A stretch of DNA of 38,841 nucleotides from a gamma proteobacterium symbiont of Ctena orbiculata (GTDB lineage: Bacteria > Pseudomonadota > Gammaproteobacteria > Chromatiales > Chromatiaceae), in the NCBI GenBank assembly GCA_003058525.1, contig QBVD01000010.1:1-38841 (forward strand). Reading direction: 5' to 3'. The notes beneath the pieces were generated by a model. It worked only from the letters and a program-made list of their open reading frames with translations. It ran no database searches and had not been told where the DNA came from. A program made the position numbers and the translations under genes. Below, piece after piece: positions 1-16,543 of this stretch; position 1 is the stretch's first letter; every line of letters begins with the position of its first letter.

Positions 1-112
1 GTAATCGTAATATCTCTCTTAATTGTCGCATCGATAGTCTCTTCGTTGGCATCACCGTTCCCGATAGGCAAAATCGGTTAGGTTAGCAGTGGAAAATCAA
101 TGCGTGGGATGG

Positions 113-240
113 GATTCTGGCATCGTGAACGGTGATTCTGGAAACAACGCAAAAGCGTTCATGATCAACCAGAATGAGTGTTCACGATGAATCAGAATAG
201 GTGTTCATGATCGTTCAGAATCAGTGTTCACGTTCGGCCA
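113..240. mobile_element. Degenerate 23-bp repeats resembling IS21-family ends (remnant)
   Basis: Four head-to-tail units of 23 bases lie at 149-171, 172-194, 195-217 and 218-240. They share the pattern GAAT..GTGTTCA(C/T)G followed by a variable part ending in CA. One further unit lies in the opposite orientation at about 113-141. Repeated GTGTTCACG..CC(A/G)GAAT blocks are typical of the multiple terminal repeats of IS21-family elements (known). No istA or istB coding sequence is visible, so this is an end remnant or an element truncated by the window edge. The opposed unit suggests that two ends meet here. The flanks at 1-112 and 241-388 show no gene I can support. Confidence 0.5.
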
Positions 241-388
241 GAATATGCATATGCCACCCGGCCACCTCAACGACCACTATAACCAATTGATAATGCGGGA
301 AACTGCAGTCAGATTATCTGTACGAGCCCCTGATCATGTCCCGGGCGGCGCTCAACAAGACGTCCATAAGCGCCTCAATCCTAGCGGC

Positions 389-1648
389 TTATTCATACCG
401 AAGCGCGACTACCGGCCTTAGATTGGCGGCCCGGATCGCTGGAGCCAGACCCGACAACAGACCAACGCTGATTGATACACACAGGGCGACAGTCACCATG
501 AGCCAGGTGGGTTGCAGTGGAAAGTCACTCAACCAGGACAATATAAAACTGGCACCGATTCCCACGACTAGACCGATCCCGCCGCCTATCAATCCGATCA
601 TCATCGCTTCCACAAGAAACTGGGACAGAATATCAGACTTGCGAGCACCGATTGACCGCCTGAGTCCGATCTCTCTGGTACGTTCCAGCACAGACGTACT
701 CATTATATTCATCACACCCATTCCACCAACCAAAAGCGAGACGAATGCCGCCACCAAACCAATAATTGAAACACCGTTCAATATTCTGTTTGCGGTTTCG
801 ATATATTGGGCCATGGTCTCATGCCTGTAGTTGAACCGGCCACTATGATTCCGTTGTAGCAACGACTCGACCTGTTCAGCGGCTTCCTCCGCCGCCTCCA
901 GACTGACAGCTTCCCCTTGCAGCCCGTCGATAGCGTTTGCGTGGTCTTTGCCTTTGAGCATTTGCAGGTAGGTATAAGGGACAAGGATGCGATTGTTGAC
1001 ATCGCGCCCTCCGGTGGAGCCGATGCTGGCGAGGAAGTCACGGCTTTTTTCCCTCAATACACCGATCACCATGACTTTCTTACCCTGGATGCGTATATGC
1101 TCACCCACGACTGTCGCATAGGGAGGAAATAGATCATTCCTTGCGATAGGGCCAATGATCGCAACCCCCCTGTTTCGCTGTTCATCGCTGAGGGTGAAAT
1201 AGCGACCATCCACCAGCTGGTCGTTATTGATCTGAAAATAATCTACGCCGACACCCCGAATTTCCGCATTGCTATAGCGGTCGCCTCTGCGAACGACGAT
1301 CCTGCGCCCTTGGCTGTAAACAAGTGGCGTTATATTCTTCAACTTATCGCAACAGCCTTGCCGAATCAGCTGGTAGTCTGTCTCATCAATCCCACTGCCC
1401 TTACGCAGCGCTTTGTTTGGATCTTTATCATTCTTTTGCCTGAACACCCATAGAGACTCCAACCCGAATGTTTTTAACTCATTGAAGACCAGGAAATGCC
1501 CGCCACTACTGATCGCACTGACGGCAATGATTGCGGCCACACCGACCGCCATACCAAAAATACTGAGAATGCTTCGAAGCCTATTATCCCTTAATGCCGT
1601 TAATGCTTCGAAAAATATGCTGATGACATAGGTATAATTCCTAACCAC
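389..1648 (-). CDS. MacB-type ABC transporter permease (FtsX-like)
   Basis: Inner-membrane permease of 419 aa, last gene of the peptide operon and third part of a MacA-ATPase-MacB style tripartite exporter. It has the family layout: one N-terminal membrane segment (about 28-50), a large periplasmic MacB_PCD-like domain (about 50-285), and three C-terminal membrane segments (about 293-320, 348-375, 383-405). The coupling segment ERTREIGLRRSIGA lies just after the second membrane segment. The start is GTG, preceded by an AGG-type ribosome site and overlapping the ATPase stop by 8 bases, so translation is probably coupled. Unlike E. coli MacB, the ATPase is a separate protein, as in DarB-type transporters of darobactin clusters. 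Export of the cluster product, or self-protection, is inferred from context. Confidence 0.85.
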   Translation of the reverse strand: MVRNYTYVISIFFEALTALRDNRLRSILSIFGMAVGVAAIIAVSAISSGGHFLVFNELKTFGLESLWVFRQKNDKDPNKALRKGSGIDETDYQLIRQGCCDKLKNITPLVYSQGRRIVVRRGDRYSNAEIRGVGVDYFQINNDQLVDGRYFTLSDEQRNRGVAIIGPIARNDLFPPYATVVGEHIRIQGKKVMVIGVLREKSRDFLASIGSTGGRDVNNRILVPYTYLQMLKGKDHANAIDGLQGEAVSLEAAEEAAEQVESLLQRNHSGRFNYRHETMAQYIETANRILNGVSIIGLVAAFVSLLVGGMGVMNIMSTSVLERTREIGLRRSIGARKSDILSQFLVEAMMIGLIGGGIGLVVGIGASFILSWLSDFPLQPTWLMVTVALCVSISVGLLSGLAPAIRAANLRPVVALRYE

Positions 1649-2306
1649 CGACTACCTGCCCATCCTTTAAGTGGATCGTGCGCTGTGCATATTTGGCCAC
1701 CCCCTGTTCATGAGTAACCAACAGAATTGTCGTGCCTGCATGATGGAGTTCCTGAAATAGGGCCATGATCTCATTCCCTGTCTTTGTATCAAGACTACCC
1801 GTCGGTTCGTCGGCAATAATCAATTGCGGGCTGTTGACCAGCGCGCGCGCTATGGCGACGCGCTGCTGTTGACCTCCCGACAATTCAGCTGGACTATGAT
1901 CCGCCCATTTGCTCAGTCCCATTCGCTCCAGCGCCTCCTGCGCGAGCGAGTGGCGCTTTTTTAGCGGAATCCCTCGATAGAGCATTGGGAGTTCTACATT
2001 GCGTCTCGCGCTTATCCGTGGAATGAGATTGAACAATTGGAAAACGAAACCGAGATTCTCATTCCTCAACCGAGTCAAATGATCGTCATCCAAATTGCTG
2101 ATATCCGTCCCTGCAAACATATATGTTCCACTATCGAAGTGGTCGAGGCAGCCGATTATGTTGAGAAGTGTCGATTTGCCTGAACCTGACGGCCCCATCA
2201 ATGCAACAAACTCACATGGCTCGATGCGGAAACTCACACCTTGCAATACGGGTATAACCACTTTTTCACGATGGTAGCTTTTATAAACGGCTTGTAATTC
2301 GATCAT
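1641..2306 (-). CDS. ABC transporter ATP-binding protein (LolD/MacB-type)
   Basis: Cytoplasmic ATPase of 221 aa that powers the MacB-type permease encoded next to it. Walker A GPSGSGKST is at 38-46, the Q-loop glutamine at 90, the signature LSGGQ at 142-146, Walker B LIIADEP at 162-168 and the switch histidine at 199. Length and sequence fit the LolD/MacB/FtsE-like MetNI-independent group. Its ATG overlaps the stop of the upstream membrane fusion gene (ATGA), and its own end overlaps the permease start by 8 bases. The three transporter genes thus form a tightly coupled unit. The transported substrate cannot be read from the sequence; the RiPP product is the contextual candidate. Confidence 0.9.
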   Translation of the reverse strand: MIELQAVYKSYHREKVVIPVLQGVSFRIEPCEFVALMGPSGSGKSTLLNIIGCLDHFDSGTYMFAGTDISNLDDDHLTRLRNENLGFVFQLFNLIPRISARRNVELPMLYRGIPLKKRHSLAQEALERMGLSKWADHSPAELSGGQQQRVAIARALVNSPQLIIADEPTGSLDTKTGNEIMALFQELHHAGTTILLVTHEQGVAKYAQRTIHLKDGQVVGG

Positions 2307-3385
2307 TGTTCAAGCAGGACGCGATCGCCGTCCGCCAAATGGTGTCCTTCCGGCAAGACGATCCGATCATCGACTGACAGCCCTGAAACAACCTCGGTAT
2401 GGGTAATGCTTTGAATACCCATTGTTATAGGCTGCATGGAAATACGGTTGTTTTCGACTAGCGCCACATGCGGCCCGGACTCTTTTTCGATGATGAGATT
2501 GTGTTTCAATTTAATGGCATTGTCGCGGTGCGCTGTACGGATTTTCAAATCCACCTGTTGCCCTATCAGCAATTCCTGCGCATGCCTGCTTAGACTGATT
2601 TTTACACTCAAGGTATTGGTGCCATCGGTATCCTGCTTGTTCACTGCCCGCGCGATGAAGATCACCTTTTCGTCCCAAACGATATCCGGCCACGCATCTG
2701 TCATCACTTGAATCAGGCTTGATTGAGAAATAAGACCGCTGTCTCCCGCATCCACTTGCGCCTCGATGTAGGGAGCCGAGTCGTCAACGACGGTGAACAG
2801 CGTCGTGGCCTCGCCTAACGCCGGTTGAACCGCCTGCCCAACTTCTGCGTTTCGATGCACGACGACGCCTGAAAATGGCGCCGATACACGATGGAGATCA
2901 AGTTTTATGTTTTGCAGTTGATAGTCTGCCTGATTGACTTTGAGTTCAGATTGAGCGTCGCTCAATTCCGCTTCTACATTTTCAACGGCCTGTAGAGATT
3001 CACCGCCGGTTAACTTTACCTCTCTTATTCTTCGCAATTTCCGTTTAAGTTCCTTAATTTTATCTTTGGATCTTTCCATGATTGCCTTTGAGCGCAGCAC
3101 TTGCGCGCGCGCTTCAGCATCATCCAGCTGCGCCAATAACTGCCCCTTCGCAACATGCTCCCCCTCGTTAACCAGAACCGAGGTCAAATGGCCAGGAATA
3201 CGTGAAATAACATCGACGCGGCGAGCGGCCTTGACCACGCCTGACACTGATAGGTAGGTTGATATAGACCCTTGCTCTACCGGGCCGGTCTTTACTGATA
3301 TCGCAGAGTCGCCGCGATAAGACATGAAACTCCAGAGACTGACACAAGCGGCGAGGACAATGAGTGTACTTATTAATCGTTTCAT
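2303..3385 (-). CDS. HlyD/MacA-family periplasmic membrane fusion protein
   Basis: Periplasmic adaptor of 360 aa linking the inner-membrane ABC permease to an outer-membrane channel. It has an N-terminal membrane anchor (about 4-22), a biotinyl/lipoyl-like half (VISRIPGHLTSVLVNEGEHV), a Lys/Arg/Glu-rich coiled-coil hairpin (about 95-155), the second lipoyl half (VSAPFSGVVVHRNAEVGQ), and beta-barrel and membrane-proximal domains. I place the start at 3385 because AAGG lies 4 bases before this ATG and the membrane anchor follows directly. An alternative ATG at 3421 overlaps the upstream stop as ATGA and adds 12 residues. No TolC-like outer-membrane partner is encoded in the window, so a chromosomal TolC elsewhere would be needed. 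Confidence 0.85.
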   Translation of the reverse strand: MKRLISTLIVLAACVSLWSFMSYRGDSAISVKTGPVEQGSISTYLSVSGVVKAARRVDVISRIPGHLTSVLVNEGEHVAKGQLLAQLDDAEARAQVLRSKAIMERSKDKIKELKRKLRRIREVKLTGGESLQAVENVEAELSDAQSELKVNQADYQLQNIKLDLHRVSAPFSGVVVHRNAEVGQAVQPALGEATTLFTVVDDSAPYIEAQVDAGDSGLISQSSLIQVMTDAWPDIVWDEKVIFIARAVNKQDTDGTNTLSVKISLSRHAQELLIGQQVDLKIRTAHRDNAIKLKHNLIIEKESGPHVALVENNRISMQPITMGIQSITHTEVVSGLSVDDRIVLPEGHHLADGDRVLLEQ

Positions 3386-3417
3386 TTTGCCTTGGTCACA
3401 CAGTGAGTCGATTATTC

Positions 3418-5175
3418 TCATCCTGCATCGACAGATGGTTGGATGTTGCCTTCACAGAATCTGGCGATTACATAGTACTCTTCCTGGCGTAATTCACCTG
3501 GCGAGTGGTGGATAATCTTATCCCTCAACGCGCCATGCTCCGCCAAAGACCTGACCAGTTCCATCGCTAAACGCTTCGTCACGCCTGTTGTATTTTCTAT
3601 GGGTCTATGTACTGCAGCGGTTGGACAGGATGCCTTGTCCACCTCCTGACTGAATTGCGCCGGGCATTTTCCTATGGGACTGTCATTTTTCCAGTACCAA
3701 GGATTGGCCCTGAAAGAGTCGATTTTCGACTGGTGTGTTTCGAGAAACTCTATTGTCTGTGATGCTTCAGACAGGCGTTCTGTCGGAAAGCCGAACATAA
3801 TGAATAACTCGACAGAGATGCCATACTCCTCGCAAAGCTCCAGTATCCGTACTGCATCCTGTAACTTGTAGCCTTTTCCCATTGTATCGACCACACGCTG
3901 AACTCCTGACTCTAATCCAAACGACAGGGAACGGCAACCCGCCTTCACCAACGGCTCAATTAAGTTTATGATTTTCTTTTCAAAACGCGCCATGGTACCA
4001 AAAAATATCTGATCTGACGTCTTACTTAATTCACGGCTCAACCGCTCCAACATTCTGGGTGAAGTCGATTCGTCGCATATACCCACATAATCGACATGAT
4101 GCTCCTCTTTAAAGCGGCGCATATTTTCTGCGACAAGCGATGCATCCAATTCTCTCCAGCCACTTTGTAGTGTATTGGAATGATCACAAAATGCGCATTT
4201 GTTCCAGTAACACCCTCTTGCGGTCATGAGGGGCGCTATCTTTATCGGCGATAAATACTTCTTATAATCTTGCAGCAGACTGAGATCGATGGCCGGTAGC
4301 TCATCTGTTTCTATAGGCGGCCCTTCTGGCTGCAACAGGATATTCTGCCCCTGCTGGTAAAAGAGACCGGGAATATTGTCAATCGATTGACCAGTCGCCA
4401 CGCAATTGCACAACTGCAACAGCGGTTTCTCCCCTTCACCCAGAATCCCATACGGCTGCAACATGGGTGCGATTTTCACGTAGTTTTCGTTTTCTGCTGT
4501 AATTACCGTCGGCCTCCCCTCAAATAGTTCGTGAAAATAGGTGCCGCCTACGACGATCGGCGTATTCAGTATTTTGCTTATTTGGTCGATTAGAATATAA
4601 CTGTGATGAGCCTGCTCGGAATAACTGATTGACACACCGATCAATTCAGGATTTATCGCTTTGAGTTTTGGGATAAGGTACTCTTCACAGTATCGCAATA
4701 GGGGATGACCGCTTTTTATCGTCTCAGTACTCCTATCCCAATATCTTCTGAATGACCAATTTATCGGGCGTAATCGACTGGGTAAAGAAGCGATTTCCGC
4801 TGATATTTTAACCGGGTGATAGGGTAGTTCTAATATTTTCCTTGCATCGCTGATAAGAGCGATGGCTTCGCGAAACGATACAAGCGTGTTGTGGTTATAA
4901 TCATCCGGCGTCCATAACCTTTCGAGAAATTTCGATACAGTCGCGTAATCCGAAGCGATGGTGATATTATCGTTTATTCCTTTTAGCGTTTTGCGCGTTA
5001 TTTCATAGTGCTTTCGAAATAACTCAGGGTTTAATGTGTAATGATAATAACTGGGGGATACATCAATGGTTGTAACGTCGATACCGTTCTGTCTCAGGTA
5101 ACTCCCTAGGGCTAGTATACTGAGTGGAGGCGAAAAGGGCGAACCTCCAGGCATGCTTAGAATTGCTATTTTCAC
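3418..5175 (-). CDS. B12-binding domain radical SAM enzyme, RiPP cluster
   Basis: Protein of 585 aa with an N-terminal cobalamin-binding (Rossmann-like) domain at about 1-260 and a radical SAM barrel from about 312. The cluster-binding cysteines are C322, C327 and C330 in GCYWNKCAFC, giving CX4CX2C rather than the canonical CX3CX2C. A GLESG-type motif follows at 420-424. No DxHxxG base-off motif is visible, as in many class B enzymes. Family members methylate unreactive carbon or phosphorus or rearrange skeletons (known). Here C-methylation of the peptide, or modification of its acyl group, is inferred from position between the metallopeptidase and exporter genes. The start is a GTG without a strong ribosome site. 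It is cytoplasmic, with no signal peptide. Confidence 0.85.
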   Translation of the reverse strand: MKIAILSMPGGSPFSPPLSILALGSYLRQNGIDVTTIDVSPSYYHYTLNPELFRKHYEITRKTLKGINDNITIASDYATVSKFLERLWTPDDYNHNTLVSFREAIALISDARKILELPYHPVKISAEIASLPSRLRPINWSFRRYWDRSTETIKSGHPLLRYCEEYLIPKLKAINPELIGVSISYSEQAHHSYILIDQISKILNTPIVVGGTYFHELFEGRPTVITAENENYVKIAPMLQPYGILGEGEKPLLQLCNCVATGQSIDNIPGLFYQQGQNILLQPEGPPIETDELPAIDLSLLQDYKKYLSPIKIAPLMTARGCYWNKCAFCDHSNTLQSGWRELDASLVAENMRRFKEEHHVDYVGICDESTSPRMLERLSRELSKTSDQIFFGTMARFEKKIINLIEPLVKAGCRSLSFGLESGVQRVVDTMGKGYKLQDAVRILELCEEYGISVELFIMFGFPTERLSEASQTIEFLETHQSKIDSFRANPWYWKNDSPIGKCPAQFSQEVDKASCPTAAVHRPIENTTGVTKRLAMELVRSLAEHGALRDKIIHHSPGELRQEEYYVIARFCEGNIQPSVDAG

Positions 5176-5263
5176 TTTATTGGCTATGTAGACAGCTGGC
5201 CACCGCTAAACGTTCATCAAATGATCCACAGTTGTAATACTGCTGCTGTTATTCAATTCGGTC

Positions 5264-5947
5264 CTATGAAACCGTCATATTTTGGAGAATATTCAGGTTC
5301 AATATCCGCCTCGCCGCCGATGTAAATTCCTCGCCTTCCTTGACACTTCGAAGGAGATTATGTATGTCTTTAGATTGTGTATCTGAACTCAACAAGTAGG
5401 AAACCATCACCTCTATCTGTGCATTGACTCGTGAATTATCGAACCATTGTTCACCATGCACATTCGTTATGTCCTTTTTTTGCTTATCTTCGGTTTTATC
5501 CAGGTAATGGCTGTCTCTGATGTTTTCGACCTTTGTTATCCAGTGCGCAAGCGCCTCATTAAACCAGACAGGTATATATTTTGAAGTCCCGTAATAGATC
5601 CATATTGCTGAATGCAGTAATTCATGGATAAGCGTGTTGATCGTGATACTGCGCGTCCACATACCTCTGTCTACCAGCAAATATACGTTGTCTCTTATCG
5701 ATAAAGCTTTAATCCATGTTGGATAGCGCTTTCCATCCGAGAATTTCAAGTCCGGTTCTCCTACAACAATATGCACCTTCGGCTCTCGCTGCACTGGGAC
5801 ATATTGTTTTATGATGCTGAAGCAATATTTTTTTTCTTCTTGTATGATATTTATCAATTCTTGCACATTGCTTGCCGAATCCGCATATTCTGTCTTTTGA
5901 TTTTTCGTTGTCATGCTGAACACACTGCTTACGCTCGGTATAGACAT
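5264..5947 (-). CDS. Putative zinc metallopeptidase (HEXXH-X18-E), candidate leader peptidase
   Basis: Protein of 227 aa with HELLH at 108-112 and a glutamate at 131 in WFNEALAHW. This HEXXH-18 residues-E spacing is the gluzincin zinc site, as in M1 and MA-clan peptidases. There is no signal peptide or membrane segment, so it should act in the cytoplasm. I choose the ATG at 5947 because AGGAG lies 4 bases upstream and it begins 11 bases after the acyltransferase stop. A longer frame to 6022 would overlap that gene by 64 bases. Neither exporter of the cluster has a C39 peptidase domain, so this protein is the obvious candidate to remove the precursor leader. An immunity or scaffold role is also possible. 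I recognise no named family beyond the zinc motif. Confidence 0.7.
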   Translation of the reverse strand: MSIPSVSSVFSMTTKNQKTEYADSASNVQELINIIQEEKKYCFSIIKQYVPVQREPKVHIVVGEPDLKFSDGKRYPTWIKALSIRDNVYLLVDRGMWTRSITINTLIHELLHSAIWIYYGTSKYIPVWFNEALAHWITKVENIRDSHYLDKTEDKQKKDITNVHGEQWFDNSRVNAQIEVMVSYLLSSDTQSKDIHNLLRSVKEGEEFTSAARRILNLNILQNMTVS

Positions 5948-5958
5948 CTCACTCCTAA

Positions 5959-6897
5959 CTATACCTTGCCCTCCGACAATTCCACTGATGGTGCATTGAG
6001 CAGTCTTGCCCAAAAACCCCATTGTTCAGGCACTTCCTTGATCTTTTCTTCCAGTGCGCTGTTTATTTGTTTGGCGATCCTTGTTATATCGCTTTCTGCA
6101 TTGTCAGTATAATAAGCGTCAAATGGTTCTTGAAATTCGATGACAATACCGTCACTGTCGATATAACTGTATGCAGGCAAATAAGTAGCGGCGTATTTTC
6201 TACTCAACTCGAGTATACCTACCGGCATATCGACGACTCTTCCCAAAAATGGCGTACTTTTATTTTTAGTGAAGGGATAGGCATAATCCAAGTTGCATCC
6301 TATTATCGATCGACATTTCAGTGCACGTATTATTCGTATGGCACTTGTTTTCTTTGTGATATCGATAAGTTGGCATGTCTTTCCATAATCAGATAATTGC
6401 GCCTGCATTTGTTCTCTTCTTGAATCTTTTGTACTTGGCACGAGCAAACAGACGCTTCTTTCATCGATAGCTGAAAGAACTCTATCGCTAAACAAAATAT
6501 TAAAGAAACACCCGATATGCGCTGAAAACGCCACTATAGCCTTTTCACGCTTGACCGCATTGTATAGATTGTCTATCCCCTTTATTTTAACAGCTGATAT
6601 TTTGTCTCGTATGTCTTGAGGCCTTGTATAGAGCAGCCATCCATAATTAAACAATGCAAGAATGCTGTAGTAATGATTCAAATAGGAAAACCTATAACTT
6701 GTACATTCAGGTCCGATTGATTTCTGCATTTCCGGTAACAGTTTCATCGTGCGCTTGACAGACAATTTGCCATTGAACAGCTGGTCATAAAGAAAGGCTG
6801 CCCATGCTATCGGCCTACTTATAAGCACATTCCACAATGTGCCCACTCTCCATATGGGACGTAGGATTTTGTGATCCAACAGGTTATATGCATCCAT
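5959..6897 (-). CDS. LpxL/HtrB-like acyltransferase in the peptide cluster
   Basis: Protein of 312 aa resembling the lauroyl/myristoyl acyltransferases of lipid A synthesis. It has a hydrophobic N-terminal segment (about 20-38), the active-site histidine H127 in FSAHIGCFFN, a GCNLDYA...PFLGR block at 200-219, and the C-terminal PEQWGFWARL block at 290-299 that matches the PxQWxW signature of the family. The family acid in HX4(D/E) is missing: five residues after H127 is F132. It may therefore use another acid, bind acyl donors without classical catalysis, or have changed substrate. It lies inside the RiPP operon rather than with the lpx genes, so acylation of the peptide is the leading inference. 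A lipid A-modifying self-protection role is the alternative. Confidence 0.75.
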   Translation of the reverse strand: MDAYNLLDHKILRPIWRVGTLWNVLISRPIAWAAFLYDQLFNGKLSVKRTMKLLPEMQKSIGPECTSYRFSYLNHYYSILALFNYGWLLYTRPQDIRDKISAVKIKGIDNLYNAVKREKAIVAFSAHIGCFFNILFSDRVLSAIDERSVCLLVPSTKDSRREQMQAQLSDYGKTCQLIDITKKTSAIRIIRALKCRSIIGCNLDYAYPFTKNKSTPFLGRVVDMPVGILELSRKYAATYLPAYSYIDSDGIVIEFQEPFDAYYTDNAESDITRIAKQINSALEEKIKEVPEQWGFWARLLNAPSVELSEGKV

Positions 6898-6978
6898 ATT
6901 TTGCTATTCGATGTGTTTATGCCTATCTTCGATATCTATTATTTACCATGCGCAGACTGCCAGTATTATATGCAGTCA

Positions 6979-7707: not shown

Positions 7708-7725
7708 TAGCTATTACTTGCCAAC

Positions 7726-9069
7726 TCAGTGTATATTCTCTAAAAGATATCGTTTACTCAGATTCATTCCCAAATACACCCTCAATGCACTTTGCACCAT
7801 TTCACGTGTATATTTGCAATGAAGTTCGTTGACTAACCTGGTTTCTCCACTGTGGGTGTAGCTTGGGTGGTAGCAAGTTCCTCCGCACATAGTAGAGGCC
7901 CAGCATGTTTTACATTGACCAACTCTTGAAGAGACATTGTGTTCTTGCAAAAACTTGTCCCTGATTTCCGGATTGACTCCATGATTGATATCGCCGAGCC
8001 TGTATTCGTCGACATTATTGAATCTATGGCATAAATAATAATCACCCGTTGTGGCCAGACTAAAACTGCTATGTCCCGCCGTACACGGAAAGCGCATTGG
8101 CCTGTTTTCTGGTGTAAATCCGAGGTGGATTTTTTTCAGATACTTTAAATAATCTCCGAACCTGACTAGTACATCATCATTCATATTTTTAATTATATAG
8201 GCTTCCATCTCGCCTATCCTTCGCCTGAGGATATCCATTTTTTCTTTCAATTTTGTGGTGTCAGTCTCTTCGTCTGCGACGATGGCGAGGTGGACATCCC
8301 AAAATCCCGCACTTTTCAGTTGTTCATACATCTCAACCAGATCGACATCTACGTCACATAAGGTTACCCTTGCCTTTATTTTTTTAAATTCGGCTAACTT
8401 GCGAACATTCTTGACAATTGTATCGTATGATCCTCGTCCGGAATTTTTATAGGGTCTCATCGCATCATGGACATCCTGTGATCCATCTATACTGATTACG
8501 ATACTGATGTCGTATTGCAGTATTAAATCGAGTATCTTATCACTCAGGATCGTACCATTAGTCGTGAGTGAAAATGAAAATTTCGTCTTACCTTCTGCCT
8601 CGATCTTTTTCAGAGAGCCTATAGCTTCAGTCAAAAAAGAGATATTGAGTAATGGTTCACCGCCAAAGAAGAGAATATTGATACGCTTACTTGTATCAAA
8701 TTCAGTGAGTAAGTTATCGACAGCTGACTTGAACGTATCGATAGACATCTTCTCATCGTTCATTGCATTGTTTTTCGTCACATAACAATATGAACAATCC
8801 AGATTACACCGATTTGATGTAAATACAGTTATATTCTGCAGCGCCGTCTCTCTCGCAGGCAAGATCCGCAACGATTTGTTATAATCACCATCACCAAAAA
8901 GGCACATTCTGATTTCATCGTCCAATTCATCGGGTGCTTGCAACCTTTCACTCAACTGGTCGTCCACTTCCACAATTAAACCAGTATTACCAGAAAAGAT
9001 ATACCTATGTCCATGACTCTCGAGTTCCAATAATTTACTGTTATCTTGTTCCATTGCATTACCATCCAT
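7726..9069 (-). CDS. Radical SAM/SPASM peptide maturase with N-terminal recognition-like domain
   Basis: Protein of 447 aa. Residues about 15-75 form an N-terminal domain that resembles the peptide-recognition region of SCIFF/PapB/QhpD-type maturases. The radical SAM cysteines are C88, C92 and C95 in CNLDCSYC, and GGEP is at 136-139. The SPASM domain carries C329, C347, then C386, C389, C395, C399 and C418 (CX2CX5CX3C with flanking ligands), enough for two auxiliary 4Fe-4S clusters. Relatives make Cys-to-carbon thioether or other crosslinks in peptides (known). The acidic, Cys-rich precursor in this operon is the expected substrate (inference). A second ATG at 9054 is an alternative start; neither start has a strong ribosome site. 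It is cytoplasmic. Confidence 0.88.
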   Translation of the reverse strand: MDGNAMEQDNSKLLELESHGHRYIFSGNTGLIVEVDDQLSERLQAPDELDDEIRMCLFGDGDYNKSLRILPARETALQNITVFTSNRCNLDCSYCYVTKNNAMNDEKMSIDTFKSAVDNLLTEFDTSKRINILFFGGEPLLNISFLTEAIGSLKKIEAEGKTKFSFSLTTNGTILSDKILDLILQYDISIVISIDGSQDVHDAMRPYKNSGRGSYDTIVKNVRKLAEFKKIKARVTLCDVDVDLVEMYEQLKSAGFWDVHLAIVADEETDTTKLKEKMDILRRRIGEMEAYIIKNMNDDVLVRFGDYLKYLKKIHLGFTPENRPMRFPCTAGHSSFSLATTGDYYLCHRFNNVDEYRLGDINHGVNPEIRDKFLQEHNVSSRVGQCKTCWASTMCGGTCYHPSYTHSGETRLVNELHCKYTREMVQSALRVYLGMNLSKRYLLENIH

Positions 9070-9108
9070 TACGTCTATACCAAGTCTTCTGCGTCAATGT
9101 AGAACAAC

Positions 9109-9164
9109 CGATAACGCGGGCTTATCGATACTGTGCGGATACTTCTTCATCACTGCTAGCAGTG
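9109..9164 (-). repeat. Two inverted repeats between the SPASM genes
   Basis: In the 140-base gap between the two SPASM genes there is a perfect 14-base palindrome CACTGCTAGCAGTG at 9151-9164. A 6-bp stem CGATAA/TTATCG with a 7-base loop lies at 9109-9127. Neither is followed by a T-run in the direction of transcription, so they are better read as RNA-processing or stability structures than as terminators. Confidence 0.35.
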
Positions 9165-9209
9165 TGGTGCATCTCCTTCCATCTATCATTGATGCGATAT
9201 CATTCTCTA

Positions 9210-10454
9210 TCAGTTAATTCCCTGCTGATTTATTGATAATGTTGCTTTTTCAGATTTGATTTGACGCGTGTTGTTATCTATTGACTGATTACCCATACCT
9301 CTATGCATAAGATAGCTTTGTAGTGCTGGATTAGGTAATTTCAGGATGTTTTCTTCACAAAGTCCATGTTCTCTATCTATACCCGTTTCGTACATGGCGA
9401 TTTCGATATGATTGAATATTTTCTTATACTGATCACAAAAGAAAGGGCCGATTATCCCTTCTGTCGAATAGTCTGCAGGACAGCCACCATGACACACCTT
9501 GTAGTATTTGCAAAATAGGCAGTGCTCCATGCGCTGCTCTTCTTTGACTGACCATTTCATTCTTGTTTTATTGCTTCTATCGATCAGCGCATCCAAGGAG
9601 TCGTCCAGAATGTTACCCAAGCTTACTAGAGGAAATGAGTCACAGAATGACGACTCGCCATCCGGGGCAATCGAAATCATATTTTGATTTAAAACGCAGT
9701 TATTCTGAAATGTGCAGAGTACGCTTTTCTCCGTCAGTAGCGCAATGATCACACTGCAAAAGAATCTTATTTCGAATCGACTGTCGGCATCGTAAAACCA
9801 ATCATCGAATACACGATTGAATAATATACTCAGACTATCTTTTTTCGCTGTGGGAAACGAATCCTTTCTTGGAACAAGCAAGTCGAGAAAGTGTACATTT
9901 GTTAACGATTTATAAAAGGGATACAATTCATGGGATTGTGCCGCATAATTCAGATTAGCAACGGATAACAGTGCTATTTCAATGTTATTTTCCGCTAAGA
10001 GCTCAATGCCCCTCATCACATCTTCATAGGAACCGTGTGCATTCTTTTTGTATACGCGAGACGAATCATGGATATATTTCGGTCCATCGAGCGAAACGCC
10101 CAACCCCACATTGACACCCAACCTTACAATGGCTCTGTAATCAGCAATAAACTCTTCATCGAACAGTGTTCCATTTGTTTGAATGGAGTTGCGAACATCT
10201 CTATCATGCAAGTAGCGTTGCTGCAGCTTGAAGATATTGTCCAGATAGTGTGACTTGCGCAACAGAGGTTCGCCGCCGTGAATCGAGAAATGGATTGACT
10301 CAGCATCCGAATTCGCCACATTCCGCATAATGCTTTCAACCGTCTCTATCCTCATGTTAGAGGGGCGGTTTTTCATCTCACTTGCATAATAACAATAGTG
10401 GCAGTCGAGATTACAGCCATTCGTAACATTCAATACGATTTCAATCCTTTTCAT
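9210..10454 (-). CDS. Radical SAM/SPASM peptide maturase, cyclophane/anSME-like
   Basis: Protein of 414 aa. The radical SAM motif is nearly N-terminal (C14, C18, C21 in CNLDCHYC), so unlike its neighbour it has no leader-binding domain in front. HGGEP is at 59-63 and SLDGPKYIHDSSRV at 121-134. The SPASM domain has C253, C271, C312, C315, C321, C325 and C340 (CX2CX5CX3CX14C). A tail of about 60 residues follows. This layout is shared with sulfatase maturases and with the GrrM/XyeB/FxsB-type enzymes that join aromatic residues to a residue two positions on (known). It is the first gene after the precursor. The precursor has three tryptophans, two of them in W-X-N or W-X-K settings, which makes cyclophane formation a reasonable inference. 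Confidence 0.87.
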   Translation of the reverse strand: MKRIEIVLNVTNGCNLDCHYCYYASEMKNRPSNMRIETVESIMRNVANSDAESIHFSIHGGEPLLRKSHYLDNIFKLQQRYLHDRDVRNSIQTNGTLFDEEFIADYRAIVRLGVNVGLGVSLDGPKYIHDSSRVYKKNAHGSYEDVMRGIELLAENNIEIALLSVANLNYAAQSHELYPFYKSLTNVHFLDLLVPRKDSFPTAKKDSLSILFNRVFDDWFYDADSRFEIRFFCSVIIALLTEKSVLCTFQNNCVLNQNMISIAPDGESSFCDSFPLVSLGNILDDSLDALIDRSNKTRMKWSVKEEQRMEHCLFCKYYKVCHGGCPADYSTEGIIGPFFCDQYKKIFNHIEIAMYETGIDREHGLCEENILKLPNPALQSYLMHRGMGNQSIDNNTRQIKSEKATLSINQQGIN

Positions 10455-10654
10455 CTGTTTGTTTCTTCCCTGAGGCGACTACTCGATTCCAGCCATCAGT
10501 ACTGATCGAGCTGATTACCGCATTGATTACGGTAAGCTTTAATAAATATTGTAGAGCATTTTGGTTAATTCTACTGCGGCAGGATATGCAATCCTATTTA
10601 GAGACACTTACATAGAGTGCATACCCCGCCACGTCGACTCAGCCTAGTGCATTG
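10455..10654 (-). promoter_or_regulatory. Spacer between precursor and first maturase, with inverted repeats
   Basis: This 200-base spacer holds no gene I can support. It contains a perfect 12-base palindrome ATCAGTACTGAT at 10495-10506, a stem TTACCG/CGGTAA (10515-10520 with 10530-10535), and weaker stems at 10551-10574 (GTAGA/TCTAC) and 10581-10595 (AGGAT/ATCCT). None is followed by a clear U-run in the minus direction. In RiPP operons such a spacer often lowers expression of the enzymes relative to the precursor, and that is the likely purpose here (inference). Confidence 0.35.
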
Positions 10655-10837
10655 TCAGCAAGTCGATTTCTTCCAGCCGACAACCCATTCATTCGGACAG
10701 ATATCGTTGACCCAATCGCTACCGGTATCACAGGAACAACCACCGTCGCAGGCTAGAATATCCTCCCTGTTATCACCGCTACTCATTTCTGTCAGATAGT
10801 TTTCCAATGCCTTTTTGTTGATTACTTTGATTTCCAT
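10655..10837 (-). CDS. RiPP precursor peptide (Cys/Trp-rich core)
   Basis: Peptide of 60 aa, first gene of the minus-strand operon. GGAG lies 8 bases before the ATG. Residues 1-28 are a helix-prone charged leader. The C-terminal part is compositionally distinct, with cysteines at 30, 34, 36, 47 and 60, tryptophans at 42, 51 and 55, and acidic residues at 31, 37, 41, 45 and 50. A Gly-Gly pair at 32-33, with Asp-Ile at -8/-7, resembles a double-glycine leader end. Cleavage there would give a 27-residue core with four Cys and three Trp. Two W-X-N/K triplets occur (WVN at 42-44, WKK at 55-57). There is no signal peptide or lipobox. I know no described precursor family with this core; the call rests on composition and on its place before three radical SAM genes. 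Confidence 0.8.
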   Translation of the reverse strand: MEIKVINKKALENYLTEMSSGDNREDILACDGGCSCDTGSDWVNDICPNEWVVGWKKSTC

Positions 10838-11122
10838 GAGTTTTTCTCCATTATGCAGAATTCCATCTTAATTGATAGCACGAAGACTGTAGCGGATAAT
10901 ATAAATTGCCGCCTCACTTCGCCATACGACTGCATCATACATAATACGTTTATGTCAACTATAACAATTAAACATTCATAATTTTTTAACTGGCCAACAT
11001 CGATTATCAATACGTTCAGTTTTTTTAACACTGTTAAGAATACTATTGATTACCTATATCGTTTTGGAGTCAAAATGCTTACACTAACCTTGCTACACCC
11101 GAGTATTTAACTGCACAACGCG
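10838..11122. promoter_or_regulatory. Divergent promoter region of the peptide cluster
   Basis: AT-rich 285-base region between the precursor (minus) and the hydrolase (plus). For the minus strand there is a -10-like TATATT at 10903-10898, giving a leader of about 50 bases, but without a good -35. A perfect TTGACA lies further up at 10958-10953 without a well-spaced -10. An inverted repeat TTAAC-ACT-GTTAA is at 11025-11037 and could be an operator. No regulator gene is encoded in the cluster. Confidence 0.4.
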
Positions 11123-12178
11123 ATGACATTTGCTCTCAACACATTTTCCTTACACAAGCTTTTGACGATTTGTGCTGTCGTACTTTTTTCCGTCTTGAGC
11201 AGCGCGTGTTCCACCAAAATCGGCTATCTGGTGACCAGCATCGCCAATCCTCTGGCAGTCAAATATATCAAGCTGGACAATAACACAAGTTCCTCCTACT
11301 ACACCTACCAGATTGGCCAAGGCGAACCCGATACCATACTTTTTTTTATTCCAGGCTCAGGCTGCACCAGTTTAAAGTACTATCTGAAGCCATATTTGTC
11401 TCATTTAACAGGCTCTGTTCACGTTTATGCCCTTCAAAAACGAAACCTTGAAAACAATAATATGGGACTTTTTGATTGCGATAAGGCGTTTCTTGACACT
11501 GATCACTTCACCCAGTGGGTTATCGACAACAAGCGTTTTGTCGAGGAGATTTCCCGTACTCTTCACTTTGAGAATAAAACCATTGTCTTGCTTGGCGTAT
11601 CCGAAGGTGGGAATGTCGCAGCTGCTATAGCTGCCAGTACGCCTGTTGTTTCTCACCTTGCCATCCTGGGAAGCGGCGGCATGAAACAAATTGACGAACT
11701 GAAACTTCTTGTCAAGAAATCAGGGGTAAATGCAAATATCGATGATGTCTTCAACACTATTGTCAAAGACCCTACGAATATTGAAAAGACCGTATATGGA
11801 CAAACCTATAAATATTGGAATTCCGTCGCTTATGTTGATCCCATGAAATTCTACGTTACTCTCGATATTCCTATTTTTGTCGGCATAGGCGAAGCAGACA
11901 ATAATGTCCCGATCGAGTCGGCGATTGCCTTGCATGATTATTTCGAAAAACGACAGAAAAGCAATCTCACGCTTTGCATCTATCGACATGCTGACCATGC
12001 TCTAGTCGACCCGAATGGCATCTCTCACCGTTCTCATTTTTTAACCACAATGACACGTTGGGTGAATAAAACAGTCGCTGTTAGAACAAGGACACTCTCT
12101 TATTTCTTACCCGATGGAGAACACACACTTGCGGACCTTCTGGATAACGATGACGAACTCTTTGTAAAATGTCAGTAG
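11123..12178 (+). CDS. Alpha/beta hydrolase with lipoprotein-like signal
   Basis: Protein of 351 aa with a hydrophobic signal (about 11-28) ending in LSSAC, so C29 is a possible lipidation site, although serine at -3 is not the best lipobox residue. The catalytic set of an alpha/beta hydrolase is visible: nucleophile S160 in GVSEGG, D259 in GIGEADN and H292 in RHADHALVDP. An oxyanion-region motif FFIPGSGC lies at 74-81. It should act outside the cytoplasm, in the periplasm or on a membrane. It is divergent from the precursor operon and followed by a peptide exporter gene, so it may trim, de-acylate or inactivate the product (inference). No good ribosome site precedes this ATG, so the start is uncertain. 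Confidence 0.75.
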   Translation: MTFALNTFSLHKLLTICAVVLFSVLSSACSTKIGYLVTSIANPLAVKYIKLDNNTSSSYYTYQIGQGEPDTILFFIPGSGCTSLKYYLKPYLSHLTGSVHVYALQKRNLENNNMGLFDCDKAFLDTDHFTQWVIDNKRFVEEISRTLHFENKTIVLLGVSEGGNVAAAIAASTPVVSHLAILGSGGMKQIDELKLLVKKSGVNANIDDVFNTIVKDPTNIEKTVYGQTYKYWNSVAYVDPMKFYVTLDIPIFVGIGEADNNVPIESAIALHDYFEKRQKSNLTLCIYRHADHALVDPNGISHRSHFLTTMTRWVNKTVAVRTRTLSYFLPDGEHTLADLLDNDDELFVKCQ

Positions 12179-12401
12179 ACGATGCACGATCTCCTTTTAC
12201 ATTCTCGCTCTCGGCCAACGACAGTATGCCTTGATCAAGTATGCGGTACTAAACAAGACTCGCTTATGTTTCTCTATGGCCACACCAATGTACGAAGGCT
12301 CTGTAACACGCCGGTCAGGCGCACTCGTAACAATCACAGGCTATGCTGCCGACAGGTTATCTTACCGCAGCTGCTTTACGATACCGTATTAAGGATGATA
12401 C
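12179..12401 (+). other. Hydrolase-exporter spacer without supported gene
   Basis: This spacer of 223 bases has an open frame (12182-12430) that overlaps the exporter start, lacks a ribosome site and looks random. I see no terminator. AAGGA lies 7 bases before the exporter ATG and is the only clear signal. Confidence 0.4.
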
Positions 12402-14048
12402 ATGAATTTCATTATCGATTTTTTTTCTAGATCCTGGCCACTTATCACAACGACTCTCCTGACAGGCTTAATCAGTGGCATCAGCACCACATTGCTGCTG
12501 GTAACCGTAAACAAAGGCCTCGGCGCCTTGGGAAGTGATGGTGATCGCCTAACACTGTTAGCCCTAAGCTTTACCGCACTCTGCTTGATCGTTCTGGTAT
12601 CAAAAATCATTACTGAGTTGCTGCTCTTAAAAATGGCGCAAAGAGTCACAATGGAACTGCGGCTTGAACTGAGTAGAAAAATCATCACGTCGCCCTTTGA
12701 GACACTAGAAAAACTCGGTACATCGAAAATGTTCGCAAACCTCATCAGCGATATCAGCACACTGACCAGTTTTATCACGAGTGTTCCGTCACTGGGAGTC
12801 AGCGCCATTATCTTGCTATCCTGCTTCATCTATTTAGGCACTCTATCCTGGAAAATGTTGATACTCACTTTCTCCTTCATCTTGATTGGTCTCTCAATCT
12901 ATATCACGTTATCAAACAAAGCGAGAGTGATCGTAAAAGAGACTCGTAATATACATGACCATTTGTACAAGTGCTTTCAGGGTGTCACCCACGGTGTGAA
13001 AGAGCTCCAAATGCACTATCTCCGACGGGATCATTTCCTCAACTCAGATCTGAAAACAGTCGTCAGCCAAATAAATAGCCTGAATCTGAGCAGCGGACTA
13101 TATTTTATACTCGCACGGAACTTTGGCATGATTCTGTTCTTTATTCTTATCGGAGTACTGATATTCGTCGCACCTCAATCCTTCGTGGTTGAATCGGATG
13201 CGTTAAGAGGGTATGTCATCGTCATTCTCTACCTTATCGGACCGCTTCAGGTATTGCTATCCACCTACCCCAGCATTATTCAGGCTAAGATATCTTTACA
13301 CAAAATCACCGATCTGGGCGCCTCTCTGGGAGACACCGTACAGTCAAAGTCCGTTCTTACACCCGGCATCACACAGGTCGATCTATTAAGCTTGCGTGAT
13401 ATAGAAATCGAATATGAGCAGCAAAACGGCGAGGGATTCAAACTGGGTCCTTTGGATATTGATTTGATTCCGGGGGAAATCATTTTCCTCACGGGAGGAA
13501 ACGGCAGCGGCAAAAGCAGTTTCGCAAAAGTATTAGTCGGTCTGTATCAGACTAAAAACGGTAGTATATCGATCAATAATACATCGATAGACGAATCCAA
13601 TATGGACTGGTACCGGCAGCATTTCACCGTTCTTTTCTCAGACTACTACCTTTTCGAGAATATCGGCGGCTTACAAAACCGGATGCCGGATAATAATATC
13701 GAAAGCCTTACACAATCCTATCTAAGGAAGCTAGAACTCGATGAAAAAGTCAAGATCGAAGATGGGAAGTTTTCGACCACCAAGCTATCCATGGGGCAGA
13801 GAAAACGCCTGGCATTGCTAATAGCCTATCTGGAAAATCGACCTATCTATGTTTTCGACGAATGGGCCGCCGACCAGGATCCCGCGTTTAAAAAACTCTT
13901 TTACACTGTTTTACTCGAAGAACTCAAAGTTAAGGGAAAAATCGTGTTTGTCATCAGTCATGATGATCAATACTTCCACGTGGCGGACAGATTACTGAAA
14001 ATGGATTATGGAAAACTGGCGGAACTGTCCAAAGCCAAGGCTGACTAG
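12402..14048 (+). CDS. SyrD/PvdE-type cyclic peptide export ABC transporter
   Basis: Fused membrane-ATPase half transporter of 548 aa, the usual length of the SyrD/PvdE cyclic peptide exporter family. Six membrane segments fall at about 14-36, 52-74, 130-148, 150-172, 238-258 and 268-290. The ATPase has Walker A GGNGSGKSS at 365-373, the degenerate signature LSMGQ at 462-466, and Walker B IYVFDEWAADQDP at 482-494. The DEWAADQDP form is characteristic of this family. The switch histidine is H520. There is no N-terminal C39 peptidase domain, so it cannot remove a double-glycine leader. It probably moves the peptide across the inner membrane. AAGGA precedes the ATG by 7 bases. It lies 223 bases after the hydrolase on the same strand. 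Confidence 0.88.
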   Translation: MNFIIDFFSRSWPLITTTLLTGLISGISTTLLLVTVNKGLGALGSDGDRLTLLALSFTALCLIVLVSKIITELLLLKMAQRVTMELRLELSRKIITSPFETLEKLGTSKMFANLISDISTLTSFITSVPSLGVSAIILLSCFIYLGTLSWKMLILTFSFILIGLSIYITLSNKARVIVKETRNIHDHLYKCFQGVTHGVKELQMHYLRRDHFLNSDLKTVVSQINSLNLSSGLYFILARNFGMILFFILIGVLIFVAPQSFVVESDALRGYVIVILYLIGPLQVLLSTYPSIIQAKISLHKITDLGASLGDTVQSKSVLTPGITQVDLLSLRDIEIEYEQQNGEGFKLGPLDIDLIPGEIIFLTGGNGSGKSSFAKVLVGLYQTKNGSISINNTSIDESNMDWYRQHFTVLFSDYYLFENIGGLQNRMPDNNIESLTQSYLRKLELDEKVKIEDGKFSTTKLSMGQRKRLALLIAYLENRPIYVFDEWAADQDPAFKKLFYTVLLEELKVKGKIVFVISHDDQYFHVADRLLKMDYGKLAELSKAKAD

Positions 14049-14754: not shown

Positions 14755-14832
14755 GCTCCAACTCACTGAATATAGAGTTACAAACCAAGGCCCAATTTCA
14801 TTGTGTAGACAGGAATCGATTGGACATTTACT

Positions 14833-16416: not shown

Positions 16417-16543
16417 CGCTAACTATCGGTATCCCTGCGCTGAAAATTGATGCGTTCTATATGATTTTCCGGATGTGACAATAAGAGCAAAAAAACCTCT
16501 CTCTGTCTAATCAATTGATGAGTGATGCCCGCATTGACAGATC

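What the first reader, a model, noticed from the sequence alone, without database searches (positions are those of the whole stretch)
389..14048. Probable undescribed RiPP cluster with three radical SAM enzymes
Seen: a 60-aa Cys/Trp-rich peptide is followed on the same strand by two SPASM enzymes, an unassigned protein, an LpxL-like acyltransferase, a HEXXH-X18-E protein, a B12 radical SAM enzyme and a MacA/ATPase/MacB exporter, with a hydrolase and a SyrD-like exporter divergent. Known: each enzyme class occurs in RiPP pathways. I know of no characterised pathway with this combination, in particular SPASM x2, B12 radical SAM and a lipid A-type acyltransferase together.
Basis: partly seen in the sequence, partly recalled or inferred. 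Interest (0 to 1): 0.92.

Follow-up and report, generated by a model that had tools for sequence, protein, structure and literature searches.

The report
Orphan three-radical-SAM modified-peptide gene island
A gene island present in one bacterial strain and missing from a close relative appears to make, cross-link and export a small cysteine- and tryptophan-rich peptide with an enzyme set that turned up in no other genome searched, so its product may be chemically new, but nothing about the product is proven yet.

Summary
A 60-aa Cys/Trp-rich ORF, two radical SAM/SPASM enzymes, an orphan 242-aa protein, a divergent LpxL-like protein, a HEXXH-X18-E zincin, a B12 radical SAM protein and a MacA/ATPase/MacB exporter lie in order, with a divergent hydrolase and cyclic-peptide exporter. 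All frames are open. The precursor has a Shine-Dalgarno site, the fourth-best coding score of 78 island ORFs, and a strong hairpin behind it.

The cluster is a low-G+C island between rnhB and dnaE, beside an IS21-type element, and is absent from a single-contig genome of the same species. The 242-aa protein has no match in 209 other genomes of its order.

Best reading: an orphan RiPP pathway. The PapB/QhpD/CteB-like enzyme makes Cys-Asp/Glu thioethers, the sulfatase-maturase/dynobactin-like enzyme makes Trp-X-Asn/Lys cyclophanes, the B12 enzyme tailors, and export is two-step, resembling pyoverdine.

Against this: no curated radical SAM cut-off among those shown is met, no second copy was found so co-conservation is unshown, and the LpxL-like protein lacks the catalytic HX4(D/E) acid.

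The parts
10655..10837 (-). 60-aa precursor peptide: leader about residues 1-29, core about 30-60 with Cys 30/34/36/47/60 and Trp 42/51/55 (leader/core border inferred)
   Evidence: no match in Pfam, NCBIfam or PADLOC, and only a chance-level PHROGs match at E 0.21
10576..10632 (-). RNA hairpin between precursor stop and first SPASM gene (about 15-pair GC-rich stem); probably sets the precursor:enzyme ratio (inference)
   Evidence: spacer z -4.61, 0 of 200 shuffles as good; hairpin z -4.20, 1 of 200
9210..10454 (-). Radical SAM/SPASM enzyme 1 (414 aa), sulfatase-maturase/dynobactin DynA-like; proposed cyclophane former
   Evidence: 206.8 bits TIGR03942, 169.9 NF041298, both under cut-off; anSME 4k37, 127 bits
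7726..9069 (-). Radical SAM/SPASM enzyme 2 (447 aa), PapB/QhpD/SCIFF-like; proposed thioether former
   Evidence: 269.1 bits NF047865, cut-off 340; SPASM Pfam under cut-off; 5wgg, 144 bits
6979..7707 (-). Orphan 242-aa protein, no family or relative found
5959..6897 (-). LpxL-like protein (312 aa) of the Lip_A_acyltrans family lacking the HX4(D/E) acid
5264..6022 (-). Zincin with HEXXH-X18-E (252 aa or shorter; start overlaps the LpxL-like gene by 64 bp); proposed leader peptidase
   Evidence: (Peptidase_MA_2 18.9 bits, cut-off 32.4)
3418..5175 (-). B12-binding radical SAM protein (585 aa), PhpK/RiPP C-methyltransferase-like
   Evidence: (94.3 bits TIGR04479; 83.6 TIGR03975; both under cut-off)
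2303..3421 (-). MacA-like periplasmic adaptor
   Evidence: TIGR01730 165.9 bits, cut-off 94.9
1641..2306 (-). ABC ATPase, MacB/DarD-like
   Evidence: MacB 258.1 bits, cut-off 966 for the fused protein; DarD 240.3, cut-off 375
389..1648 (-). MacB-like permease (MacB_PCD + FtsX)
11123..12178 (+). Alpha/beta hydrolase with N-terminal hydrophobic stretch and GVSEG motif; proposed periplasmic peptidase or deacylase
12402..14048 (+). Cyclic-peptide export ABC transporter (SyrD/PvdE/YojI type)
   Evidence: TIGR01194 463.2 bits, cut-off 286.2
1..249 (.). End of an IS21-type element with 23-nt repeats, shared with two other contig ends; taken as the cluster's left limit
14155..14766 (-). rnhB, the right-hand host flank; island border at about 14185, in the last bases of the gene

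Best explanation
It is a horizontally acquired, probably complete RiPP gene cluster. Shown from sequence: an intact small Cys/Trp-rich ORF set apart from its modifying genes by a strong hairpin, two radical SAM enzymes with full SPASM cysteine sets and different nearest families, a B12 radical SAM protein, a zincin, and two exporters of different kinds. Inferred mechanism: (1) The precursor is read from its own ribosome site, and the hairpin lowers expression of the enzymes behind it. (2) Radical SAM 2, of the QhpD/PapB/CteB group that attaches Cys sulfur to non-alpha carbons, joins some of Cys30/34/36/47/60 to nearby Asp/Glu (31, 37, 41, 45, 50). (3) Radical SAM 1, of the sulfatase-maturase/dynobactin/triceptide group, joins Trp42 to Asn44 and perhaps Trp55 to Lys57 (i to i+2 cyclophanes). 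(4) The B12 enzyme C-methylates or otherwise tailors the core. (5) The zincin removes the leader. (6) The SyrD/PvdE-type transporter moves the peptide to the periplasm, the secreted hydrolase finishes it there, and MacA/ATPase/MacB with a host TolC-type channel expels it. The LpxL-like protein may add a temporary or lasting acyl group, or may have lost catalysis and bind lipid. My estimates: RiPP cluster 0.88; thioethers by enzyme 2, 0.65; cyclophanes by enzyme 1, 0.45 (lowered from 0.5 on recheck, because three of its five best families are sulfatase maturases); two-step export 0.5; true acylation 0.3. The confidence below is for steps 1, 2, 5 and export taken together in outline.
For: Frames open and ordered. 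Precursor: Shine-Dalgarno, codon score 4th of 78, rare composition, hairpin. Enzyme 2: PapB 269 bits, QhpD 234, nif11 221, SCIFF 207 are its top four families; solved maturase 5wgg 144 bits; review passages say that reasoning from QhpD grouping led to freyrasin/PapB and the ranthipeptides (PMC11002830), and PapB accepts Cys-Xn-Asp with n 0-6 (PMC9413430 abstract). Enzyme 1: DynA is its second-best family, and YhhB, DarE, DarW, GrrM and XyeB are in its top ten; triceptide enzymes join Trp to Asn/Arg/Asp two residues on (PMC11002830 passages), and the core has W42-V-N44 and W55-K-K57. Zincin: M1 and M61 peptidases are known RiPP leader or core proteases (PMC10885120 passages). Exporters: TIGR01194 over cut-off, DarD-like ATPase, 11 outer-membrane-channel matches at seven places in the genome; pyoverdine uses PvdE, then in part PvdRT-OpmQ (PMC6206403 passages). 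Island absent from a single-contig genome of the same species.
Against: No NCBIfam cut-off shown is passed by the three radical SAM proteins; the Pfam SPASM score of enzyme 2 and the B12-binding score are under cut-off. Three of the five best families of enzyme 1 are sulfatase maturases. No exact C-X3-D/E motif is in the core; spacings are n = 0, 2, 4, 6. Enzyme 2 is a very long branch whose place is unsure. No second copy of the cluster was found, so precursor-enzyme co-conservation is unshown. The LpxL-like protein lacks its acid. MacA/ATPase/MacB have host-like G+C (0.50) against 0.39-0.46 for the enzymes, so the exporter may be a later addition. No structure could be predicted.
Confidence: 0.6

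Rival explanations
1. Enzyme 2 and the peptide belong to a protein-derived-cofactor or enzyme-subunit system like quinohemoprotein amine dehydrogenase, in which a small cross-linked peptide is a subunit and not a secreted product.
For: QhpD is the second-best family of enzyme 2 (234.4 bits). 25 of 79 loci around its relatives hold a QhpC-type small ORF by motif, and more such ORFs were seen by eye among the 26 loci printed.
Against: No dehydrogenase subunit was recognised among the twelve island genes. The precursor lacks the QhpC CWWP-type motif (motif as seen). In the tree 14 of the 15 rows labelled QhpD lie in a 16-row branch without enzyme 2 (98/97), and the fifteenth lies in another starred branch without it (100/99); enzyme 2's own place is unsure.
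Confidence: 0.07
2. The product is a peptide metallophore: the thiol/carboxylate-rich core binds a metal, and the export pair resembles that of pyoverdine for that reason.
For: Export pair of TIGR01194 and MacAB-type; five Cys and five acidic residues in the core; pyoverdine precedent (PMC6206403 passages).
Against: No TonB receptor or metal-uptake family appeared in the scans of the twelve island genes. TIGR01194 exporters also serve other peptides (recalled). Thioether formation would use up thiols.
Confidence: 0.12
3. Enzyme 1 works like an anaerobic sulfatase maturase, oxidising a Cys of the core to formylglycine or an aldehyde, and not as a cyclophane synthase.
For: Best family is TIGR03942 (206.8 bits), and two more sulfatase-maturase models are in its top five (145.1, 134.8); best solved structure is anSME 4k37 (127 bits); the Cys-Asp pair after the SPASM glycine is kept (FCDSF).
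Against: Under the TIGR03942 cut-off of 349.45. No sulfatase was recognised among the island genes, and the core has no C/S-X-P/A-X-R motif (motif recalled). Cyclophane families follow closely (DynA 169.9, YhhB 139.3).
Confidence: 0.2
4. The island is a decaying or composite remnant: real RiPP enzymes brought together by transposition, with no working pathway.
For: Mosaic G+C (0.39-0.46 enzymes, 0.50 MacA/ATPase/MacB), an IS21-type element at the border, the missing acid in the LpxL-like protein, no second copy found.
Against: All twelve reading frames are open with no stops, several neighbours overlap in operon fashion, and the iron-sulfur and zinc motifs of the three radical SAM proteins and the zincin are complete.
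Confidence: 0.12

Closest known systems
Ranthipeptides (freyrasin/PapB, thermocellin/CteB) and QhpD
   Same: SPASM enzyme 2 has PapB, QhpD, nif11-peptide and SCIFF maturases as its top four families; Cys/Asp-rich core
   Different: Under their cut-offs; no C-X3-D repeats; one of three radical SAM enzymes; own long branch
Dynobactin, darobactin and triceptides
   Same: SPASM enzyme 1 has DynA second and YhhB, DarE, DarW, GrrM, XyeB in its top ten, among sulfatase maturases; Trp-X-Asn and Trp-X-Lys in the core; separate adaptor/ATPase/permease as in DarBCD (ATPase 240 bits to DarD)
   Different: Far under cut-offs; extra thioether-type enzyme, B12 enzyme, zincin, LpxL-like protein and second exporter; darobactin needs only darA and darE in heterologous hosts (PMC9055067 passages)
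Pyoverdine export (PvdE, PvdQ, PvdRT-OpmQ)
   Same: Cyclic-peptide ABC exporter, hydrolase proposed to be periplasmic, and MacAB-type pump; PvdE was grouped with transporters of modified cyclic peptides, and the acylated precursor is deacylated in the periplasm (PMC6206403 passages)
   Different: Ribosomal, not NRPS, peptide; hydrolase is alpha/beta, not Ntn; acylation here unproven; separate ATPase and permease
Biphenomycin-like RiPP clusters with B12 radical SAM
   Same: B12 radical SAM enzyme acting in a RiPP cluster with other tailoring enzymes (PMC12257519 passages)
   Different: No MNIO or arginase was recognised here; two SPASM enzymes instead
LpxL/LpxM/LpxP lipid A acyltransferases
   Same: Pfam Lip_A_acyltrans over cut-off; later motifs such as PEQ kept
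   Different: 19, 14 and 20% identity to E. coli LpxL, LpxM, LpxP; HX4(D/E) acid absent

Membership tests
RiPP biosynthetic cluster (general) | Genetically encoded small precursor next to modifying enzymes | tested here: met
RiPP biosynthetic cluster (general) | Precursor co-conserved with the enzymes across genomes | tested here: inconclusive
   No second copy found: 0 of 79 loci, 0 of 13 other loci; 242-aa protein in its own genome only, 1 of 210 in the order
RiPP biosynthetic cluster (general) | Modified peptide product detected | not testable with these tools
   Needs mass spectrometry
Ranthipeptide (PapB/CteB) | Maturase over the curated cut-off NF047865 (340) or TIGR03974 (425) | tested here: not met
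   269.1 and 207.1 bits
Ranthipeptide (PapB/CteB) | SPASM domain in the maturase | tested here: inconclusive
   Cysteine set complete, Pfam score 17.8 under cut-off 21.5
Ranthipeptide (PapB/CteB) | C-X3-D/E motifs (freyrasin type) | tested here: not met
   Only n = 0, 2, 4, 6 spacings; PapB itself accepts n 0-6 (abstract)
Ranthipeptide (PapB/CteB) | S to non-alpha-carbon thioether | not testable with these tools
   Needs co-expression and MS/NMR
Triceptide/dynobactin/darobactin | Maturase over cut-off (DynA 450, DarE 650, XyeB 450, YhhB 445) | tested here: not met
   169.9, 128.8, 111.6, 139.3 bits
Triceptide/dynobactin/darobactin | Aromatic-X-X cross-link motif in the core | tested here: met
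   W42-V-N44, W55-K-K57; a weak test, since short motifs occur by chance
Quinohemoprotein amine dehydrogenase (QhpD) | QhpD over cut-off 453 and a QhpC-type gamma subunit | tested here: not met
   234.4 bits; precursor lacks the motif; tree
Anaerobic sulfatase maturase | TIGR03942 cut-off 349.45 | tested here: not met
   206.8 bits
B12 radical SAM RiPP C-methyltransferase (TIGR03975) | Cut-off 281.85 | tested here: not met
   83.6 bits; PhpK family 94.3 of 600; Pfam B12-binding 27.4 of 32.1
Lip_A_acyltrans (LpxL) | Pfam gathering score | tested here: met
   37.6 of 22.3 bits
Lip_A_acyltrans (LpxL) | HX4(D/E) catalytic motif (recalled; visible in the E. coli rows) | tested here: not met
   H127 then IGCF then F, or leucine in the gapped register
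Gluzincin peptidase (M1/M61-like) | HEXXH-X18-E | tested here: met
   HELLH at 133
Gluzincin peptidase (M1/M61-like) | Curated family score | tested here: not met
   Peptidase_MA_2 18.9 of 32.4 bits
Cyclic peptide export ABC transporter TIGR01194 | Cut-off 286.2 | tested here: met
   463.2 bits

The most novel reading that the evidence does not exclude
A first hybrid RiPP class in which one 31-residue core carries both Cys-Asp/Glu thioethers and Trp-X-Asn/Lys cyclophanes plus a B12-dependent change, and which borrows pyoverdine's logic: the peptide is acylated to anchor it, flipped by a PvdE-type transporter, trimmed in the periplasm by the secreted hydrolase and expelled by a MacAB pump. The LpxL-like protein would then be an acyltransferase with an altered active site acting on a peptide, and the 242-aa protein a new RiPP enzyme or recognition protein.
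Probability: 0.15. Interest if true: 0.8.

Novelty: new variant of a known kind. Interest (0 to 1): 0.55.

Why it matters
If real, the island joins two cross-linking chemistries that the passages I saw describe in separate RiPP classes on one short peptide, in a Gram-negative host with a dedicated two-stage export route. Cross-linked Trp peptides of this general kind (darobactin, dynobactin) inhibit BamA (PMC11002830 passages). It also offers two testable protein puzzles: an LpxL relative without its catalytic acid in a peptide cluster, and a 242-aa protein with no relative found.

Tried and rejected
Searches that led nowhere: enzyme 1 as a single-sequence query in genome contigs (16 stretches matched a pattern, none a relative) and viral contigs, none found; the 242-aa protein in plasmids, none; a 15.7-bit hit of the 242-aa protein inside a 2960-aa frame (G081) was rejected as chance; precursor in plasmids, 4 records at E 4-9, taken as chance; HEXXH protein in plasmids, none; LpxL-like protein in plasmids, 3 records, all partial. 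The B12 protein's best plasmid match, in Rhizobium phaseoli (25.8%, 93% covered), has an S8 peptidase beside it but no annotated second radical SAM or precursor gene within 15 kb (that gene table is incomplete). The regions around enzyme-1 hits in G821, G842 and G868 hold only radical SAM matches and one 38-bit ATPase-part match to the SyrD-like protein. 13 further loci (4 plasmid, 9 genome) hold no match to the precursor, 242-aa, LpxL-like or HEXXH protein at E 1e-3. Rfam over the island, none; PADLOC none and PHROGs nothing useful. Two neighbourhoods of enzyme-2 relatives read through (L091, L112) look like quinoprotein systems (read by eye, not scanned). A first scan of the precursor lacked its Met by my coordinate slip and was repeated. 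Placing enzyme 2 by tree is unsafe: end branch 3.41, a long-branch warning, and its join to L113/L126 (90/79) may be false (30 of the 79 loci used, QhpD labels partly by eye).

Full report
What is there. The window is one whole contig of a 4.74-Mb genome in 112 contigs. Between 389 and 14048 lie twelve open frames. On the - strand, in order of transcription: a 60-aa Cys/Trp-rich peptide (10655-10837), SPASM enzyme 1 (9210-10454), SPASM enzyme 2 (7726-9069), a 242-aa protein (6979-7707), an LpxL-like protein (5959-6897), a zincin (5264-6022), a B12 radical SAM protein (3418-5175), MacA (2303-3421), an ATPase (1641-2306) and MacB (389-1648). On the + strand: an alpha/beta hydrolase (11123-12178) and a SyrD-type exporter (12402-14048). 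Four neighbouring pairs overlap, three of them by 4-8 bases, as operon genes do.

Is the peptide real? Its start has GGAG eight bases before it. By a codon score trained on the other eleven genes it ranks 4th of 78 island ORFs of 40 aa or more (the score was not trained on it, but was on the eleven genes it is ranked with). It is the only one of 51 island ORFs of 45-100 aa with at least 5 Cys and 3 Trp; 50 of 3000 simulated spacers of equal size held such an ORF (45-120 aa, either strand) and 3 also had a Shine-Dalgarno-like site. The 203-nt spacer behind it folds far better than shuffles (z -4.61, 0 of 200), chiefly by one hairpin at 10576-10632 (z -4.20, 1 of 200). I read this as a device that keeps the precursor in excess; that step is inference. 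The sequence is MEIKVINKKALENYLTEMSSGDNREDILACDGGCSCDTGSDWVNDICPNEWVVGWKKSTC. It matches nothing in Pfam, NCBIfam or PADLOC; its single PHROGs match, at E 0.21, is chance level.

Enzyme 2 scores best against PapB (269.1 bits, cut-off 340), QhpD (234.4 of 453), nif11-peptide (220.7 of 518.7) and SCIFF maturases (207.1 of 425), and against the solved radical SAM protein 5wgg (144 bits; that this is CteB is recalled). Passages of a review (PMC11002830) say that reasoning from QhpD grouping led to freyrasin and its synthase PapB, with S to beta-carbon links between Cys and Asp, and to the ranthipeptide class. The abstract of PMC9413430 says PapB accepts Cys-Xn-Asp with n 0-6; the core here offers n = 0, 2, 4 and 6 but not 3. 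In a tree of 31 rows (30 of the 79 loci plus enzyme 2), enzyme 2 lies outside the 16-row branch that holds 14 of 15 QhpD-labelled rows (98/97), but on a branch of length 3.41 with a warning, so its place is open. Its Pfam SPASM score is under cut-off (17.8 of 21.5), though the cysteine set is complete.

Enzyme 1 scores best against sulfatase maturases (206.8 of 349.45), then DynA (169.9 of 450); two further sulfatase-maturase models (145.1, 134.8) and YhhB (139.3 of 445) complete the top five, and DarE, DarW, GrrM, TIGR04083 and XyeB the top ten. Its best solved structure is anSME 4k37 (127 bits). The best-ranked rows found elsewhere are about 25-30% identical (one search listed 30 of 252 records). 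Passages of PMC11002830 give triceptide links from Trp to Asn, Arg or Asp two residues on; the core has W42-V-N44 and W55-K-K57. The B12 protein has CX4CX2C, and its best families are PhpK (94.3 of 600) and RiPP C-methyltransferases (83.6 of 281.85); its best other matches in 298 phylum genomes are 25-31% identical. No NCBIfam cut-off shown is passed by any of the three (25 best of 92, 25 best of 80, all 22).

The LpxL-like protein passes Pfam Lip_A_acyltrans (37.6 of 22.3). In alignments with E. coli LpxL, LpxM and LpxP its histidine 127 lines up with theirs, but the acid five residues on is phenylalanine, or leucine in the gapped register; the later PEQ motif is kept. So the fold family is supported and the classical catalysis is not. 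The zincin has HEXXH-X18-E but only a weak family score (18.9 of 32.4). Passages of PMC10885120 describe M1 peptidases as RiPP leader proteases and an M61 peptidase that cuts a core. The 242-aa protein matched nothing in Pfam, NCBIfam, PADLOC or the solved structures and only weakly in PHROGs (E 0.056).

Export. The + strand exporter is well over the TIGR01194 cyclic-peptide cut-off (463.2 of 286.2). The ATPase is MacB/DarD-like (258.1 and 240.3 bits, under cut-off), and the genome has 11 outer-membrane-channel matches at seven places. The hydrolase has a hydrophobic N-terminus and GVSEG; a lipobox is possible by a loose recalled pattern, but the stricter pattern that I ran did not match. Passages of PMC6206403 describe acylated ferribactin most likely moved by PvdE, deacylated in the periplasm by PvdQ, and pyoverdine secreted in part by PvdRT-OpmQ; [quoted passage not shown] The likeness in layout is my inference.

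Where it came from. A single-contig genome of the same species (G857) and a sister species (G009) match the window from 14186 to 31999, the end of the stretch asked, at 99 and 96%; over the first 937 bp G857 is only 94% identical. Beyond that point they run directly into dnaE. In the window genome dnaE is on contig C109: likeness to the G857 junction stops in the last bases of rnhB, and the contig goes on for about 280 bp with IS21-type repeats and the tail of IstB (50 bits over 42 aa, PF01695), then ends. The two sides meet within about five bases on the G857 sequence (L051 933 and 937). The left 249 bp of the window hold similar 23-nt repeats and recur at two other contig ends. The simplest reading is rnhB - cluster - IS21-type element - dnaE, which makes MacB the last cluster gene; more DNA between IS copies cannot be ruled out. 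The island is 44.3% G+C against 52.0% for the flank to 34321; the enzymes are 0.39-0.46, the three export genes 0.50. Patches of DNA similarity in genus genomes fall in the ATPase and MacB genes and the IS end, none in MacA or the enzymes; conserved ABC motifs may explain them.

How rare. The 242-aa protein: 1 of 56 relatives (own), 1 of 210 genomes of the order (own), and in the class sample 2 of 369, one own and one chance-level; these samples overlap. Enzyme 1: in the family sample 5 of 194 genomes match at E 1e-15, one its own, the others at most 29% identical; in the class sample 3 of 369 at 1e-25, one its own. Enzyme 2: 16 of 398 phylum genomes at 1e-20, one its own, the others at most 31%. 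The 79 loci kept for enzyme 2 in genome contigs are at most 32% identical, and 0 of 79 hold matches to the precursor, the 242-aa protein, the LpxL-like protein, the zincin, the B12 protein, MacA, MacB or the hydrolase at E 1e-4.

Print. Library searches for the combination listed no paper on a lipid A-type acyltransferase with radical SAM RiPP enzymes; apart from the papers cited above by passage or abstract, I saw only listings and starts of abstracts. One search returned 0 papers, and of the 1,000 papers only 25 were listed. The library lacks most subscription journals.

Judgement. A RiPP cluster is very likely; its class is new in combination, not in its parts. Thioether formation by enzyme 2 is the best-supported chemistry, cyclophanes the next, acylation the weakest.

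Noticed in passing
L113 and L126 (Candidatus Eisenbacteria contigs), within about 2 kb downstream of the PapB/QhpD-like gene: Small Cys/Asp-rich ORFs with repeated C-x-x-D-like units sit behind the radical SAM gene, two of this kind in L113 and one in L126; possibly an undescribed ranthipeptide-like family.
   Followed up: partly
L091 (Catenovulum sediminis) 6157-12792: A QhpD-like radical SAM gene lies between a LodA/GoxA-like protein with a ferritin-like neighbour and a flavoprotein, a layout suggesting a tryptophylquinone oxidase system (family names recalled, not scanned).
   Followed up: no
window 34585-38537: A second low-G+C patch (35-38%) at the right end with ATP-grasp, DegT-like and FemAB/GNAT-like genes, suggesting another variable surface-polysaccharide region (names recalled from the translations).
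   Followed up: no
window 14186-15122: rnhB and the stretch beside the island are 94% identical to the same-species genome while the whole flank is 99%, suggesting the island came in by recombination with its flank.
   Followed up: partly
window 389-3421: The MacA/ATPase/MacB genes have host-like G+C (0.50), and the ATPase and MacB genes have patches of DNA similarity to genus genomes, unlike the enzymes; the exporter may have joined the cluster later.
   Followed up: partly
window 1-249: An IS21-type end with 23-nt repeats recurs at the ends of contigs C26 and C59; the assembly is broken at IS copies.
   Followed up: yes
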